Shown: positions 10,376 through 16,425 of the stretch, one piece after another
Layout of the letters: every line of letters begins with the position of its first letter
How positions within the stretch are numbered: the stretch's first letter is position 1
Source: Microbacteriaceae bacterium
Lineage (GTDB): Bacteria; Actinomycetota; Actinomycetes; Actinomycetales; Microbacteriaceae
Assembly (NCBI GenBank): GCA_022487185.1
Contig: JAKVJE010000011.1
Span: forward strand, 1-32,328
DNA: 32,328 nt
Direction of reading: 5' to 3'
Notes under the pieces: model-generated
What the model saw: the letters and a program-made list of their open reading frames with translations, nothing else
What the model was told of the DNA's origin: nothing
Databases searched by the model: none
Translations under genes and position numbers: made by a program

Positions 10376-10501
10376 GCAGGAACCTCCTGGCTCGTCTCCA
10401 CGTCTCGTACGGGGGGAGCCTAGCCGATGGGAGGTCTCCAAGGCTGAGGATCCGCCGCATCCCAGGGGCCCGCGGTGTCCCGATCGCCCTACTCTGGGGG
10501 C

Positions 10502-11251
10502 ATGACGAAAAACGCCGATCCAGGAATTCAACAACTTCATCGTCTCGTCGCAGCGGCGAATCGGATCGTCTTCTTCGGCGGGGCAGGCGTTTCGACGGAG
10601 TCCGGGATCCCGGACTTTCGGAGCGCGAACGGCCTGTACTCCCGCGAGTACCGGAGGAATCTGAGCCCCGAGGAAATCCTCTCGCACAGCTTCCTGGAGC
10701 GGGACCCTGAAACCTTCTTCGACTTCTACCGGGAGAAACTCATCCACCCGGAGGCTCGCCCCAATGCGGCGCACCGGGCGCTCACCCAACTCGAGCGCGA
10801 CGGGAAGCTCCTGGGCGTCATCACCCAGAACATCGACGGCCTCGACGAGATGTCCGGAACCCGGCAGGTCGCGGAGCTCCACGGGACGACGATGCGAAAC
10901 TACTGCGTCGACTGCGGTCGCACCTACACACGGGAATTCGTGGCCAGGACGACCGGCGTGCCCCGCTGCAAGGCCTGCGGCGGGCTGGTGCGGCCCGACG
11001 TCGTCCTCTATGAGGAGGCACTCGACGAACAGGTGCTCGACCGGGCGGTCTCCTGGCTTCAGGCGGCCGATCTGCTCATCGTGGCGGGGACCTCGCTCCG
11101 GGTCTACCCGGCGGCGGGACTCATCCGCTTCTACCGGGGCACAAACCTGGTGCTGATCAACAAGGACGCCACCCCGGCGGATGCCTCGGCCACGCTCGTC
11201 CTGCATGAGGCGGTTGGAACGGTGCTCGGCGGACTCATCGCGGCAGACTGA
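10502..11251 (+). CDS. NAD-dependent protein deacylase, Sir2 family
   Basis: GGAGVSTESGIPDFRS, TQNIDGLDEMSG, ELHGT, zinc cysteines CVDCG/CKACG, GTSLRVYPAAGL. ATG 10502 chosen over the upstream start of the 10475 ORF. Confidence 0.93.
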   Translation: MTKNADPGIQQLHRLVAAANRIVFFGGAGVSTESGIPDFRSANGLYSREYRRNLSPEEILSHSFLERDPETFFDFYREKLIHPEARPNAAHRALTQLERDGKLLGVITQNIDGLDEMSGTRQVAELHGTTMRNYCVDCGRTYTREFVARTTGVPRCKACGGLVRPDVVLYEEALDEQVLDRAVSWLQAADLLIVAGTSLRVYPAAGLIRFYRGTNLVLINKDATPADASATLVLHEAVGTVLGGLIAAD

Positions 11252-11410
11252 CCCGCGCCGCGACAGACAAGTGCGGCCATCTTGAGGGAAGATTGGAGAA
11301 CAACAATGGAACAGACGATAGCCGCATACACAAGAAAAGGCAGCGACAACTGAGTTTGATACCCCAGCGCACTTGAGACACTGAATCCACCGTGTCAAAC
11401 AGTAGACAGA

Positions 11411-11700
11411 CTACGAGTCGTTTCGGGAGTCGTTTTGCTGGGTGCAATGTTCAGGCCGGTTATTTTCGATCCAGTTGATGGGTATGGCCGCCGATGGCGG
11501 AGTGGCGCCGTAGCGATCGTAGATGTGCAACCAGCCGGGTAGTACGGTGCGGCGTTCAGACTCTGATCCCTGAACCTGGCGTGCGCCCAGTTGTCGGCGA
11601 GAATGCGGTGGAACCGCTCGATCTTCCCGTTGGGCTGCGGCCGGCGAGACTGTGAACATCTTTGCCGCGGCCCGTGGCGAGCAACTATCCTCGACGATCG
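11411..11700 (-). pseudogene. IS481-like transposase C-terminal remnant, frameshifted
   Basis: Two overlapping minus-strand frames each carry part of an rve/IS481-type tail: 'RPQPNGKIERFHRILADNWAHARF' in one, 'RRTVLPGWLHIYDRYGATPPSAAIPINWIENNRPEH' in the other. No intact N-terminus seen. Confidence 0.65.
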
Positions 11701-12011
11701 GGCACGCCAACCGGAGTCGGGCACACGGGGGTCGCGTAGCGCTCGTGTGAGACACGAGGGCCTGCAGGTTCGTGCAACGGTTGAGTTCAACAGCTCCACT
11801 CCACAACCGGAGGCCCCTCAGAGGCGTGTCGCCGAAACAACGTCGCCGGGCATCACGCCTTGGCTGACTTGTCTTCCATGTTCAGGGTGATTACGGGGGG
11901 GAAGGCCACCAGGCGAGTACATGCTTGACCCCCATATGGTAGTACTATCAACGTCTCGCCTCCTGAAATAGGCTCCACGCAAACATCCAGTGCCCTGTAA
12001 ACGTTCAGTAC

Positions 12012-12728
12012 CTAAGCATCGACCAACTGGAAGCTGTCCTCACCATATTTTGAAGCATAGTAATGAATCGAACGCGTACAAACATCAATCATAATGTCGC
12101 GCATTTCATCCTTTGACCAGGGCTCCTCACGAAAAAAGAAACTGCCACGATTGAACTCACCATGGTCGCCTTGATTGATTACATTAATCCGATTCAATTG
12201 GCCAAACATGGCTATAGTTCGAACCCGGTCCAAAATTGAACTGCCTTCCTGGAAGTCATATCCATATCCAAAACATACAAATGGAAAAATTCCTTGGTCC
12301 AACAAAGTTGTACGAAAGCCAATAATGTTTTTCCCTAAGCGCTCGATAGCATTTCCCATCGCTTGCTTCTTCTTGCCCTCCTTCAAACGAAGATCGTTTG
12401 TCCCTTGATTTTTCACCTCAGTTATCAGTATCGGCAAAAATGTCTTATCATTACCCCGTAGCTGAATCGACAATATGCCCCCATCAGGCTTCATTGTTGA
12501 TCGCTCAAAGGGATCTGCAAAATCAATGGTAGGAAAAACACTCCGCAGGTGACGTACAACAGCGGTCAAGTGAATTTCAGTCTCATGATGTAACGCGACA
12601 CGAAAGCGTTGTGTAATTGCCTCTGATGCCTGGACTAGCGAATCACCTAAATCCAATTCCTGAATGGAAGATTTTACATTAATAACCGTCCCGTAACGGT
12701 TCTTCCGTAGACGTGATTTCTGCGCCAT
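12012..12728 (-). CDS. EcoRI-family type II restriction endonuclease (238 aa)
   Basis: KPDGGI (cf. EcoRI KPDGGI with D91), ITEVKNQG (cf. EcoRI AEAKHQG with E111/K113), QAMGNAIERLGKN (cf. EcoRI MAAGNAIERSHKN recognition segment), IFPFVCFGYGYDF (cf. HFPYVLFLEGSNF), SSILDRVRT (cf. GILNRLDRLT), DIMIDVCTRSIHYY (cf. EIMFDISTTSLRVL). EcoRI sequence recalled from memory. Starts 2 nt after a DNA methyltransferase stop. Confidence 0.88.
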   Translation of the reverse strand: MAQKSRLRKNRYGTVINVKSSIQELDLGDSLVQASEAITQRFRVALHHETEIHLTAVVRHLRSVFPTIDFADPFERSTMKPDGGILSIQLRGNDKTFLPILITEVKNQGTNDLRLKEGKKKQAMGNAIERLGKNIIGFRTTLLDQGIFPFVCFGYGYDFQEGSSILDRVRTIAMFGQLNRINVINQGDHGEFNRGSFFFREEPWSKDEMRDIMIDVCTRSIHYYASKYGEDSFQLVDA

Positions 12729-12730
12729 GA

Positions 12731-13888
12731 CTACGACTCACCTTTCTTACTGTTTCTTCTCTCGAGCAAGAATAGATGCTCATCAACATGAATATCCCGA
12801 CTACGGAGGTTTCTGCTTCCACGAAACGTGTTATATGGGATGGTTATATCTTCATACCTTCCGAACTCACCGAGCAGATGATGGAAATCCGATATCGGAA
12901 TGAAACCCTCAGAATTGAAAGAGATTGCGACGAACCTCGACGACAATGTCGCCACAAGATCCCGCATCAAAGTTAGGGCTTCACGCTTCTTGTTATACCC
13001 AGACCGATTCCAGTCAGTGGGAATGCCCGAGACCGCGCTGATTTGAGCGGGGGGTTCGTAATTCACGATCAAATTCAACATAAAATAGTTCGACCCGTAA
13101 GGATGCTGATTATAGGGCGGGTCAATGTAAACAAGATCAACCGTTTCAAGCTCATGTGCTAATTTGTTCGCGTCTTTTCGTGTGACTTGGATGTCACATG
13201 AGAACCTGCTTGTAACAGGGCTTGAAAGACGTATTGGCTTCAATATTCGGGATAACGCATTTTGGCCAGATCCACCGAACTTTCCAACACCTGTAACCTT
13301 GTCCTTATAAAAACCCTTAAACACTCCACTTGTATTAGCATGAACTGAGGCTTCAGATAGTAAAGGTCCCAGCAAATAGGGACGAAGCTCGGGCTCTAGC
13401 TTCCGAATTTCCGAGGCAAAATAGTCAATTCGTCTGGCGTTATCGCTAGTGTAGAACGCTCTTTCACCCTTTTGAATATGATTGTCATCTTCGGGCGAAT
13501 ATAAGTGCTGGATGAACCCGTCTACACATTTCCCTCCGTCTGCCTCCTGGTTGAGTCTATCCACCGCTGAATTAACTCTTTTCCAAGGAATATCAGCATG
13601 GTTTGCCAAATAACACTTGGATATAGTCTCGGCGTATGGTTCTTGATCATTTGCGAGCACATATGACGCGTACTGTTTGAGTACACGGGAGACAACACCG
13701 GATCCAGAGAATAAATCAACAGCCCGAATGGGACGTCCGTTAAGTGCATTCTGAACACGTATAAAACACCGATTCAGTTGCGAAACTAACGACCTTTTAT
13801 TACCCAGATACGTGATCAACTGATCGGTGAGATAGGATGGATCCTCTTGTATCTCATTTGGGTATAGCTCAAGTTCGAGGGCTGACAT
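12731..13888 (-). CDS. DNA adenine methyltransferase, D12 (alpha) class, cognate of the downstream EcoRI-like nuclease (385 aa)
   Basis: ITYLGNKRSLV (motif X-like), VDLFSGSGVVSRVLK (motif I), VYIDPPYNQHPYGSNYFMLN (motif IV DPPY); order X-I-TRD-IV typical of D12 N6-adenine MTases. Same strand and near-contiguous with the nuclease. Confidence 0.9.
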   Translation of the reverse strand: MSALELELYPNEIQEDPSYLTDQLITYLGNKRSLVSQLNRCFIRVQNALNGRPIRAVDLFSGSGVVSRVLKQYASYVLANDQEPYAETISKCYLANHADIPWKRVNSAVDRLNQEADGGKCVDGFIQHLYSPEDDNHIQKGERAFYTSDNARRIDYFASEIRKLEPELRPYLLGPLLSEASVHANTSGVFKGFYKDKVTGVGKFGGSGQNALSRILKPIRLSSPVTSRFSCDIQVTRKDANKLAHELETVDLVYIDPPYNQHPYGSNYFMLNLIVNYEPPAQISAVSGIPTDWNRSGYNKKREALTLMRDLVATLSSRFVAISFNSEGFIPISDFHHLLGEFGRYEDITIPYNTFRGSRNLRSRDIHVDEHLFLLERRNSKKGES

Positions 13889-14526
13889 ATGTTCTTAAGA
13901 TATCATATATCCTTTATTGTTTCTAGTTCGTCCGACCTGGGTTGAGCATTCTTGCACTGCCACTACGACTTGCGGGGGCCTCAGACCAATGAGCAACAAA
14001 AGGACTTCTGCCAGAAACAACCCTACGGATCCTTCCTAAGGCGTATCTTCGCTATGAAGATGGTGGTTAATTATCCTATAAGCATGTGTTTTATGATAGT
14101 ACGTGTGCTCTGACCAAGAGACCAAGCCCGGTCGTCCGCTGATCGTTTCGCTCGCCTGATTTGACCCGCATATCCGGCCCGGTTCCGGGGAACATGCGGC
14201 TAGGCAGGGGCGTGACTGACCCCCGCTTTGGGGTCACTTCATGGGTCTGCTGGTTCCTCAACATTGAGGGCACACTCTCTGCCGCCTGACCTCTACCGCT
14301 TTCGGTGCACCCAGTCACTGCCACGACAACTCCGAGAGCCCCGGACAAATCCATCTGTTGCTTATTTCACATCAGCAACATTCGGCACACTGTTTTCGCC
14401 ATTTCACCCCCGTAACTAACCGTCGCGTCGAGCAGGGCTGTGTGGTAACAAGGACTTGATTGTTTTGGCCAGAAGAGCGACCATCCAAGACACCCTATGA
14501 ACACGTAGGGCAGAAAGGAGGTCCTC

Positions 14527-16425
14527 GTGAGTCACACAGCCATCAACTATCAGCCCGTTGTCGCCCACCATCGCCGGGAGACCAGTCGGCCCGTCGCCTT
14601 GCCCGACGAGCCCGTCTCTGCCACTGCCCTCATCTACCTGCGCGTGTCCACTTCCCGCCAAGCCCACAAGAATGGGGAAGCCGAGGGCTACTCCATTCCA
14701 GCCCAACGAGCCGCCTGCCTGAGGAAAGCCCGGGAACTCAGTTGTGAGCAGACCGAGGAGTTCGTCGACGCCGGGGCCTCAGCCAGATCAGCTGACCGGC
14801 CAGGCCTGCAGGCCATGCTGGAGCGCATCAAACAGGGCGGGGTGGGCTACGTCATCGTCCACAAACTCGACCGGCTGGCCCGGGACCGGTTCGATGACGT
14901 CACCATCGGGCTCACGATCCACCAGGCTGGTGCCCTGCTGGTCTCGACAAGTGAGCAGATCGATGAGAGCCCATCAGGCATGCTCATGCACGGCATCATG
15001 GCCACCATCGCCGAGTTCTACTCCCGCAACTTGAGCAACGAAGCCAAGAAGGGGATGGAGCAGAAGATCAAGAACGGCGGCACCATCGGGGTGGCCCCGA
15101 TCGGCTACCTCAATACCATTCAGCGGGTCAACGGCCGCGACATCAAGGGCATCGCCATCGACCCCGAGCGGGCCCCGTTCATCCAGTGGGCCTACGTTAC
15201 CTATGCGGCCGGTGAGTGCAGTATCGCCCGCCTGACCGCCGCCCTGGCCCAGCGCGGCCTCAGGAGCCGGCAGACCCGCTGCTACGCCAGCCGGCCCCTG
15301 TCCGAGGCCCAGATCCACCGGCTGCTGGCCAACCCGTACTACATGGGCAAGCTGGTCCACAAGGGTGTCATCTACGACGGCGCCCATCCGCCCCTGATCA
15401 ACCCCGAACTATGGTTCCAGGTGCAGCACGTCCGCGCCAATCGCCGACTGGCCGGGGATCGGTCCTGGAAACACGACCACTATCTGAAGGGAACTCTATT
15501 CTGCGGACACTGCGGGGCCAGGATCGGCTTCGGCTACTCCCACGGCAAAGGTGGCACCTACCCGTACCTGTTCTGCCTGGCCCGGCACACCGGCCGCAAC
15601 CGGGCCTGCCCCCTTCCCTACCTGCGCCCACAGGTGATCGAACACAAGGTCAGCCGCATCTGGCACACCCACGTCAGCTTCAGCGACAAGTTCATCGACG
15701 AGCTCCGGCCCATCCTGCACCAGCAGCTCCAAGACGTGCTCAAAGACAACCAGACCCTCATCCACCAGCAGCAGACCAGACTTCAGAAACTCACCAGACA
15801 GAAGGCCAAGCTCTACCAAGCCTTCCTCGACGACACCATCCCAGCCGGGGACCTCAAACCGCTGCAGGCCCGCATCGAAGCCGAGATCGCCGACACCACC
15901 CGGCTGATCCGTAGTGCCCACGCCGGCACCGACCTGGTTGAAGACCGGCTCGACCAAGTCCTCGACCTGCTCAAAGACGCCGGCACGTTCTACGACCAAT
16001 GCTCCAAAGCCGAGAAGCAGCGACTCAACCAGGCCATGTTTGAGCGCATCGAGATCACCATCGACAACGACCAGCAACCCCAAACCACCGGCAGGATCGA
16101 AGAGCCCATCAGCAGCGTCATCCACGTCCTCCGCCAAAACCAGGGCCAGACCAGGCCCAAACAGCAAGGAACCCCCGACAAGCTTTCGCTTGCCGAGGGT
16201 TCCAACCTGCAACATCTGGCGGGAACGGAGGGATTTGAACCCTCGGACCCCGAAACCGGGGTCTCCACCTTAGCAGGGTGGTGCACTAAGCCGGACTATG
16301 CGACGTTCCCTCGTGGTGCTCCGAGAAGAACCCCACAGAAGAAGTATCTTACACACCCCGGGCGGAATCGCTCACTTCTGCGCCTTCGCACAGGTCTGCG
16401 TCGCCGCGGTCTGGCCGCGCACTGA
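14527..16425 (+). CDS. Large serine recombinase/integrase; ORF C-terminus is probably host sequence (antisense tRNA-Ser and beyond)
   Basis: GTG start with aaaggagg SD. ALIYLRVSTSRQ (catalytic Ser), GYSIPAQRAA, HKLDRLARDRFD, zinc ribbon CGHCGARIGF...CLARHTGRNRACPLPYL and following coiled coil. The residues EGFEPSDPETGVSTLAGW are the antisense translation of the tRNA at 16220-16310. Confidence 0.9.
   Translation: MSHTAINYQPVVAHHRRETSRPVALPDEPVSATALIYLRVSTSRQAHKNGEAEGYSIPAQRAACLRKARELSCEQTEEFVDAGASARSADRPGLQAMLERIKQGGVGYVIVHKLDRLARDRFDDVTIGLTIHQAGALLVSTSEQIDESPSGMLMHGIMATIAEFYSRNLSNEAKKGMEQKIKNGGTIGVAPIGYLNTIQRVNGRDIKGIAIDPERAPFIQWAYVTYAAGECSIARLTAALAQRGLRSRQTRCYASRPLSEAQIHRLLANPYYMGKLVHKGVIYDGAHPPLINPELWFQVQHVRANRRLAGDRSWKHDHYLKGTLFCGHCGARIGFGYSHGKGGTYPYLFCLARHTGRNRACPLPYLRPQVIEHKVSRIWHTHVSFSDKFIDELRPILHQQLQDVLKDNQTLIHQQQTRLQKLTRQKAKLYQAFLDDTIPAGDLKPLQARIEAEIADTTRLIRSAHAGTDLVEDRLDQVLDLLKDAGTFYDQCSKAEKQRLNQAMFERIEITIDNDQQPQTTGRIEEPISSVIHVLRQNQGQTRPKQQGTPDKLSLAEGSNLQHLAGTEGFEPSDPETGVSTLAGWCTKPDYATFPRGAPRRTPQKKYLTHPGRNRSLLRLRTGLRRRGLAAH
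16168..16203 (-). terminator. Strong hairpin downstream of tRNA-Ser(GCT); probable tRNA terminator
   Basis: Minus-strand RNA: ggaaccctcggcaagc-GAAA-gcttgtcgggggttcc, a 16-bp stem with two G-U wobbles and a GNRA loop, followed by ttgctgttt. The two wobbles would be A-C mismatches in the plus-strand transcript. Confidence 0.7.
16220..16310 (-). tRNA. tRNA-Ser (anticodon GCT); CCA encoded at 16217-16219
   Basis: GGGAACG...CCCTGCTAAGG anticodon arm, long variable arm GGAGACCCCGGTTTCGGGGTCC, T-loop GGTTCAAATCC, acceptor CGTTCCC-G-CCA. Confidence 0.95.

What the first reader, a model, noticed from the sequence alone, without database searches (positions are those of the whole stretch)
12012..13888. 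EcoRI-family restriction-modification cassette in an AT-richer island of a high-GC actinobacterial chromosome
The 238-aa protein keeps EcoRI catalytic residues in order (KPDGG ... TEVKNQG) and the GNAIER recognition segment. It directly follows an adenine methyltransferase gene (2-nt gap, same strand). The GNAIER segment is associated with reading the inner AATT in the EcoRI/MunI group, so the target is predicted to be GAATTC or another NAATTN palindrome. By eye I found GAATTC at about 60, 10524, 10934, 16631 and 24109, all outside the island, and none inside it. Exact specificity cannot be set from sequence alone.
Basis: partly seen in the sequence, partly recalled or inferred. Interest (0 to 1): 0.78.

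Follow-up and report, generated by a model that had tools for sequence, protein, structure and literature searches.

The report
EcoRI-like restriction-modification gene pair
Two neighbouring bacterial genes encode a DNA-cutting enzyme related to EcoRI and the DNA-marking enzyme that should protect the host from it; such defence pairs are well known, but this branch uses a different type of marking enzyme from EcoRI's own and occurs, uncharacterised in the papers I could search, in bacteria of about 20 phyla.

Summary
The 238-aa protein (12012-12728, -) is an EcoRI-family PD-(D/E)XK endonuclease: Pfam EcoRI E=1.5e-14, and the AlphaFold model's only clear PDB matches are EcoRI structures (TM 0.76). 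The upstream gene (12731-13888, -) encodes a D12-class (alpha) adenine methyltransferase, not the type that accompanies EcoRI. The same M-then-R tandem occurs (R mostly 48-65% identical) in nearly all of 61 loci from about 20 phyla and on a small Paracoccus plasmid, so it is a real, mobile Type II restriction-modification unit. Catalytic residues are invariant, and residues that read the inner AATT in EcoRI are kept with rare exceptions. Residues assigned to EcoRI's outer G:C pair differ (Met137 to Gln, Arg203 unmatched). An AATT core is therefore likely, but GAATTC as exact target is not established. Neither the host genome nor pooled relatives clearly avoid a NAATTN palindrome, and the absence of GAATTC from the island is chance (0.7 expected). 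The cassette lies beside a serine recombinase whose frame ends antisense in a tRNA-Ser gene, as close homologues end in other tRNA genes, so the region is a likely integration site. Ordinary as a system; modest interest as an uncharacterised EcoRI subfamily.

The parts
12012..12728 (-). Type II restriction endonuclease of the EcoRI family (238 aa); active site D82, E104, K106; recognition segment Q122-A-M-G-N-A-I-E-R130
   Evidence: Pfam PF02963 E=1.5e-14; EcoRI in PDB 1.2e-9 by phmmer, 1.7e-22 by profile; AF2 pLDDT 88, Foldseek to 2oxv/1eri E about 1e-13, TM 0.76
12731..13888 (-). N6-adenine DNA methyltransferase, D12 (alpha) class, 385 aa; motif I DLFSGSG, motif IV DPPYNQHPYGSNY; cognate protection enzyme, upstream of and tandem with the nuclease gene
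   Evidence: Pfam PF02086 E=2.9e-19; PADLOC MTase_II 2e-107; invariant columns in 30 relatives; only D12 gene detected in the host assembly
12729..12746 (-). M-R junction: 2-nt gap and Shine-Dalgarno-like AAAGGTGAG at the end of M, upstream of the R ATG
   Evidence: read directly from the sequence; translational coupling is inference
13889..14526 (.). AT-rich intergenic region upstream of M, between divergent M and recombinase genes; expected to hold the M-R promoter
   Evidence: composition; the sigma-70 scan finds no convincing site
14527..16425 (+). large serine recombinase (Resolvase, Recombinase and zinc-ribbon domains); its frame runs antisense into tRNA-Ser; likely integrase of the island, link to the RM genes inferred
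   Evidence: Pfam; CcrB/XisF-like NCBIfam hits below cut-off; homologues end in tRNA genes
16217..16310 (-). tRNA-Ser (GCT), likely attachment site of the recombinase
   Evidence: ARAGORN, Rfam RF00005

Best explanation
A horizontally acquired Type IIP restriction-modification system. M methylates an adenine in a short palindrome of the host DNA. R is expected to act as a dimer of the EcoRI fold that reads AATT in the major groove with its GNAIER segment and cuts unmethylated invading DNA, probably leaving 5'-AATT overhangs. M lies first in the operon, so protection can be made before the nuclease; no controller gene is seen. Shown by computation: family membership, fold, conserved active-site and AATT-reading residues, conserved M-R tandem, patchy cross-phylum distribution. 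Inferred: activity, dimer, cut position, AATT core, role in phage or plasmid defence. Open: the outer base pairs of the target.
For: Pfam EcoRI E=1.5e-14 and D12 E=2.9e-19, both over cut-off; PADLOC REase_II and MTase_II; PDB matches to EcoRI; predicted fold matches only EcoRI entries at E<=0.001, TM 0.76. 61 relatives in GTDB genomes, mostly 48-65% identity, with an M homologue found next to R in nearly all. D82, E104, K106, Q108, G125, N126, E129, I165 and R168 are invariant in 46 sequences, A127 and R130 in 45. R and M distances are correlated among 44 pairs (Mantel r=0.76, 0 of 2000 permutations). Paracoccus plasmid pCP157_17 carries the pair, annotated EcoRI-family REase and DNA adenine methylase. 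Only 4 of 300 sampled genomes of the host's family carry R.
Against: No activity or methylome data. No avoidance of any NAATTN palindrome in 432 kb of the host and none that stands out in 616 kb pooled from relatives, although a recent or well-protected system need not leave one. Identity to EcoRI itself is only about 23%.
Confidence: 0.93

Rival explanations
1. The system is an EcoRI isoschizomer: M and R both act on GAATTC exactly, as RsrI and LraI do.
For: Inner-AATT residues conserved; Ala138 and Arg200 equivalents kept in most or all members.
Against: EcoRI Met137 is Gln in 45 of 46 members, Arg203 has no counterpart in the sequence alignment, and a loop of EcoRI before GNAIER is missing. 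The known isoschizomer RsrI is 50% identical to EcoRI (PMC5896346) while this protein is about 23%. The methyltransferase is not of the EcoRI_methylase family.
Confidence: 0.25
2. The target is degenerate or shorter, such as RAATTY or AATT, or another NAATTN palindrome.
For: AATT-reading residues conserved while outer-pair residues changed. RAATTY is a documented m6A motif in Campylobacter and in two spirochaetes, and spirochaetes carry many solitary methyltransferases about 50% identical to this M. That these are the RAATTY enzymes was not shown.
Against: No direct link between a sequenced member of this family and a measured motif; no shortage of AATT or of any NAATTN palindrome in the host.
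Confidence: 0.6
3. The pair is no longer a functional restriction system: R is a decaying remnant and only M is active.
For: Several relatives have broken R with intact M, e.g. Canibacter L060/L098 and L059.
Against: Here R is full length with no stop or frameshift, and all catalytic positions are intact.
Confidence: 0.1

Closest known systems
EcoRI restriction-modification system (R.EcoRI, M.EcoRI)
   Same: R has the EcoRI fold, active site PD...E-K and GNAIER recognition segment
   Different: about 23% identity, 238 instead of 277 aa, outer-pair residues changed; gene order M-R instead of R-M; M is D12 class, whereas M.EcoRI is Pfam EcoRI_methylase, with no significant BLAST match
EcoRI-family REase plus DNA adenine methylase of Paracoccus marcusii plasmid pCP157_17 (NZ_CP065909.1)
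   Same: same M-then-R tandem, R 51% and M 44% identical
   Different: plasmid-borne in an alphaproteobacterium; M and R overlap by 1 nt instead of a 2-nt gap
D12 (alpha) methyltransferases annotated as FokI-type, LlaI-type and ulcer-associated (HpyI-like)
   Same: shared domain; 22-33% identity
   Different: partners of unrelated nucleases with other targets (general knowledge)
MunI and MluCI
   Same: from the literature (PMC4081073): named with EcoRI as possible mosaics; MunI reads CAATTG
   Different: no sequence or Foldseek match to a MunI entry appeared at E<=0.001; not compared directly

Membership tests
EcoRI-family Type II restriction endonuclease (PF02963) | score above the curated Pfam cut-off | tested here: met
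   54.2 bits against 22; matched region 24-163, profile 16-162 of 257
EcoRI-family Type II restriction endonuclease (PF02963) | catalytic D91, E111, K113 | tested here: met
   D82, E104, K106, invariant in 46 sequences
EcoRI-family Type II restriction endonuclease (PF02963) | GNAIER segment that reads AATT (G140-R145) | tested here: met
   residues 125-130; nearly invariant in relatives
EcoRI-family Type II restriction endonuclease (PF02963) | EcoRI fold | tested here: met
   AF2 pLDDT 88.3, pTM 0.85; Foldseek E about 1e-13, TM 0.76 to EcoRI
EcoRI isoschizomer (GAATTC) | residues assigned to the outer G:C pair (Met137, Ala138, Arg200, Arg203; assignment from general knowledge) | tested here: inconclusive
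   Met137 to Gln122, Ala138 to Ala123, Arg200 to Arg168, Arg203 unmatched
EcoRI isoschizomer (GAATTC) | cleaves and methylates GAATTC | not testable with these tools
   needs enzyme or methylome; avoidance test gives no signal
Type II restriction-modification system | nuclease and cognate methyltransferase encoded together | tested here: met
   tandem genes, conserved in relatives, correlated distances
D12-class N6-adenine methyltransferase (PF02086) | score above cut-off and motifs I and IV | tested here: met
   70.3 bits against 22; D58, F60, G62, G64 and DPPY invariant
M.EcoRI family (PF13651) | match to the EcoRI_methylase model | tested here: not met
   M.EcoRI itself hits PF13651 at 1.6e-130; this M does not

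The most novel reading that the evidence does not exclude
A distinct, widely spread EcoRI subfamily that keeps the AATT-reading core, has changed the outer-base contacts and works with an unrelated class of methyltransferase, with a target other than GAATTC. It would show modular change of outer specificity and partner swapping on one nuclease scaffold.
Probability: 0.55. Interest if true: 0.4.

Novelty: new member of a known kind. Interest (0 to 1): 0.27.

Why it matters
EcoRI is the classic test case for how a nuclease reads DNA; mutating its base contacts generally costs activity without changing specificity (PMC4081073). A large natural subfamily with the same AATT-reading segment but altered outer contacts and a different methyltransferase gives ready-made comparisons, and possibly an enzyme with a related but different target. 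For the host it is one ordinary defence system.

Tried and rejected
Target from site avoidance: no NAATTN palindrome is under-represented in the host, and in pooled relatives AAATTT (0.79) and CAATTG (0.87) are no lower than many unrelated palindromes, so this route fails. Absence of GAATTC from the island as evidence: rejected, 0.69 expected. Target from literature: no paper found that ties a member of this family to a motif; RAATTY papers are only a lead. Left end of the mobile island by a repeat of the tRNA 3' end: none longer than 11 nt in the window. Promoter: no convincing sigma-70 site. M against PDB by profile: only chance hits. Linking spirochaete handles to the two species with measured RAATTY was not possible, because sizes are rounded and names withheld.

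Full report
Observation. They lie in a trough of about 45% GC in a genome of about 66% GC. The window is a whole contig of an assembly of 1.29 Mb in 65 contigs, 83.8% complete. Its family appears to be Microbacteriaceae, judged from hits shared with named records, such as a Microbacteriaceae MAG and Canibacter (inference). All five GAATTC positions are right.

Identity of R. Pfam EcoRI (PF02963) scores 54.2 bits against a cut-off of 22; PADLOC calls it a Type II restriction enzyme. Sequence search of the PDB gives EcoRI as the only significant match: 1.2e-9 for the single sequence, 1.7e-22 for a profile of 46 relatives. AlphaFold with that alignment gives pLDDT 88 and pTM 0.85. Foldseek returns five EcoRI entries with E at most about 1e-12 and TM 0.73-0.76, then a drop to E=0.03.

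Residues. Aligned to EcoRI (Met = 1), D91, E111 and K113 correspond to D82, E104 and K106, invariant in 46 sequences. Of the residues that the review PMC4081073 names for the inner base pairs (N141, A142, R145), all correspond, with one exceptional sequence each for A142 and R145. The Q115, G140, I197 and R200 equivalents are invariant. Met137 is Gln in 45 of 46, A139 is mostly Lys or Arg (Met here), and Arg203 falls in a gap. That Met137, Ala138, Arg200 and Arg203 serve the outer G:C pair is from general knowledge of EcoRI, not from a tool. The review warns that recognition is redundant, so residue identity alone cannot fix the outer bases.

Identity of M. Pfam D12 methyltransferase (PF02086), 70.3 bits against 22, PADLOC MTase_II at 2e-107, motifs I and IV invariant in 30 relatives. 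M.EcoRI on an E. coli plasmid belongs to another Pfam family (PF13651) and follows R instead of preceding it; BLASTP of the two gives nothing significant.

Distribution. A scan of 84,980 species genomes found 61 relatives of R, mostly 48-65% identical, in Actinomycetota, Planctomycetota, Poribacteria, Pseudomonadota, Bacillota, Spirochaetota, Chloroflexota and others. An M homologue lies next to R in nearly all of them, usually with M first and a gap of a few bases or a short overlap. Six full-length loci have a more diverged M (32-36% identity) beside a normal R, which points to partner exchange. Among the other 44 pairs, R and M distances correlate (Mantel r=0.76). The RM genes are on average 9 GC points below their flanks in 50 loci, so relative AT-richness is a trait of the family and not special to this contig. 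Only 4 of 300 sampled genomes of the host's family carry R. The pair also occurs on a 6-kb Paracoccus plasmid and on three IMG/VR contigs. This is the usual pattern of a mobile restriction-modification system.

Target. The host shows no shortage of GAATTC (72 observed, 63 expected in 432 kb), CAATTG, AAATTT or TAATTA. In pooled loci of relatives AAATTT is mildly low, but no lower than many unrelated palindromes, and GAATTC is at expectation. So avoidance says nothing. RAATTY is a known m6A motif in C. jejuni (M.CjeNI, PMC4889913) and in two spirochaetes (PMC7380536). In Spirochaetota about 58 of 296 sampled genomes carry close relatives of M (46-53% identity), and 19 of the 20 inspected have no R in the retrieved flank. 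That these are the RAATTY enzymes is a testable guess, no more.

Surroundings. Divergent from M lies a large serine recombinase (14527-16425). Its frame runs antisense into the 3' end of tRNA-Ser(GCT) at 16217-16310. In six of the seven other best homologues from the family the recombinase frame also runs antisense into or through a tRNA gene: Ser-GCT, Arg-TCT twice, Arg-CCG, Leu-CAG and Ala-CGC; the seventh lies at a contig end. This marks a group of serine integrases that probably use tRNA genes as attachment sites. The RM genes probably came with, or into, such an element, but its left end was not found, and no homologue of the recombinase was found beside other members of the RM family.

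Verdict. A genuine, intact, EcoRI-family Type II restriction-modification pair of a widespread subfamily for which I found no characterised member in the searched papers. The kind of system is known; what remains open is the target sequence.

Noticed in passing
14527-16425 (+) and tRNA-Ser 16217-16310 (-); L135-L140: Large serine recombinases whose coding frame runs antisense into the 3' end of a tRNA gene, with different tRNAs in different genomes (Ser, Arg, Leu, Ala). Looks like a group of tRNA-targeting serine integrases in this family.
   Followed up: partly
L113-L132 (Spirochaetota genomes): Close relatives of M (46-53% identity) occur in about 58 of 296 sampled spirochaete genomes, almost always without a nuclease of this family next door: a widespread solitary methyltransferase, possibly the source of the RAATTY methylation reported in spirochaetes.
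   Followed up: partly
L029, L037, L047, L048, L049, L051: A normal R of this family beside a diverged M (32-36% identity, 438-464 aa), in L051 in the opposite orientation: apparent exchange of the methyltransferase partner.
   Followed up: partly
L060/L098 (Canibacter), L059: R broken while M is intact, a sign of decay of the nuclease with retention of the methyltransferase.
   Followed up: no
11395-11806: Remnants of an IS transposase (weak rve_3 match, below cut-off) left of the cassette, split over two frames.
   Followed up: no
10475-11251 (+): Sir2-family deacetylase gene next to the island; best match in sampled relatives only 53% identical.
   Followed up: no
L102-L108: Viral contigs encode a diverged EcoRI-like protein (35-38% identity over residues 77-227) with no relative of this M in the retrieved stretch.
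   Followed up: no
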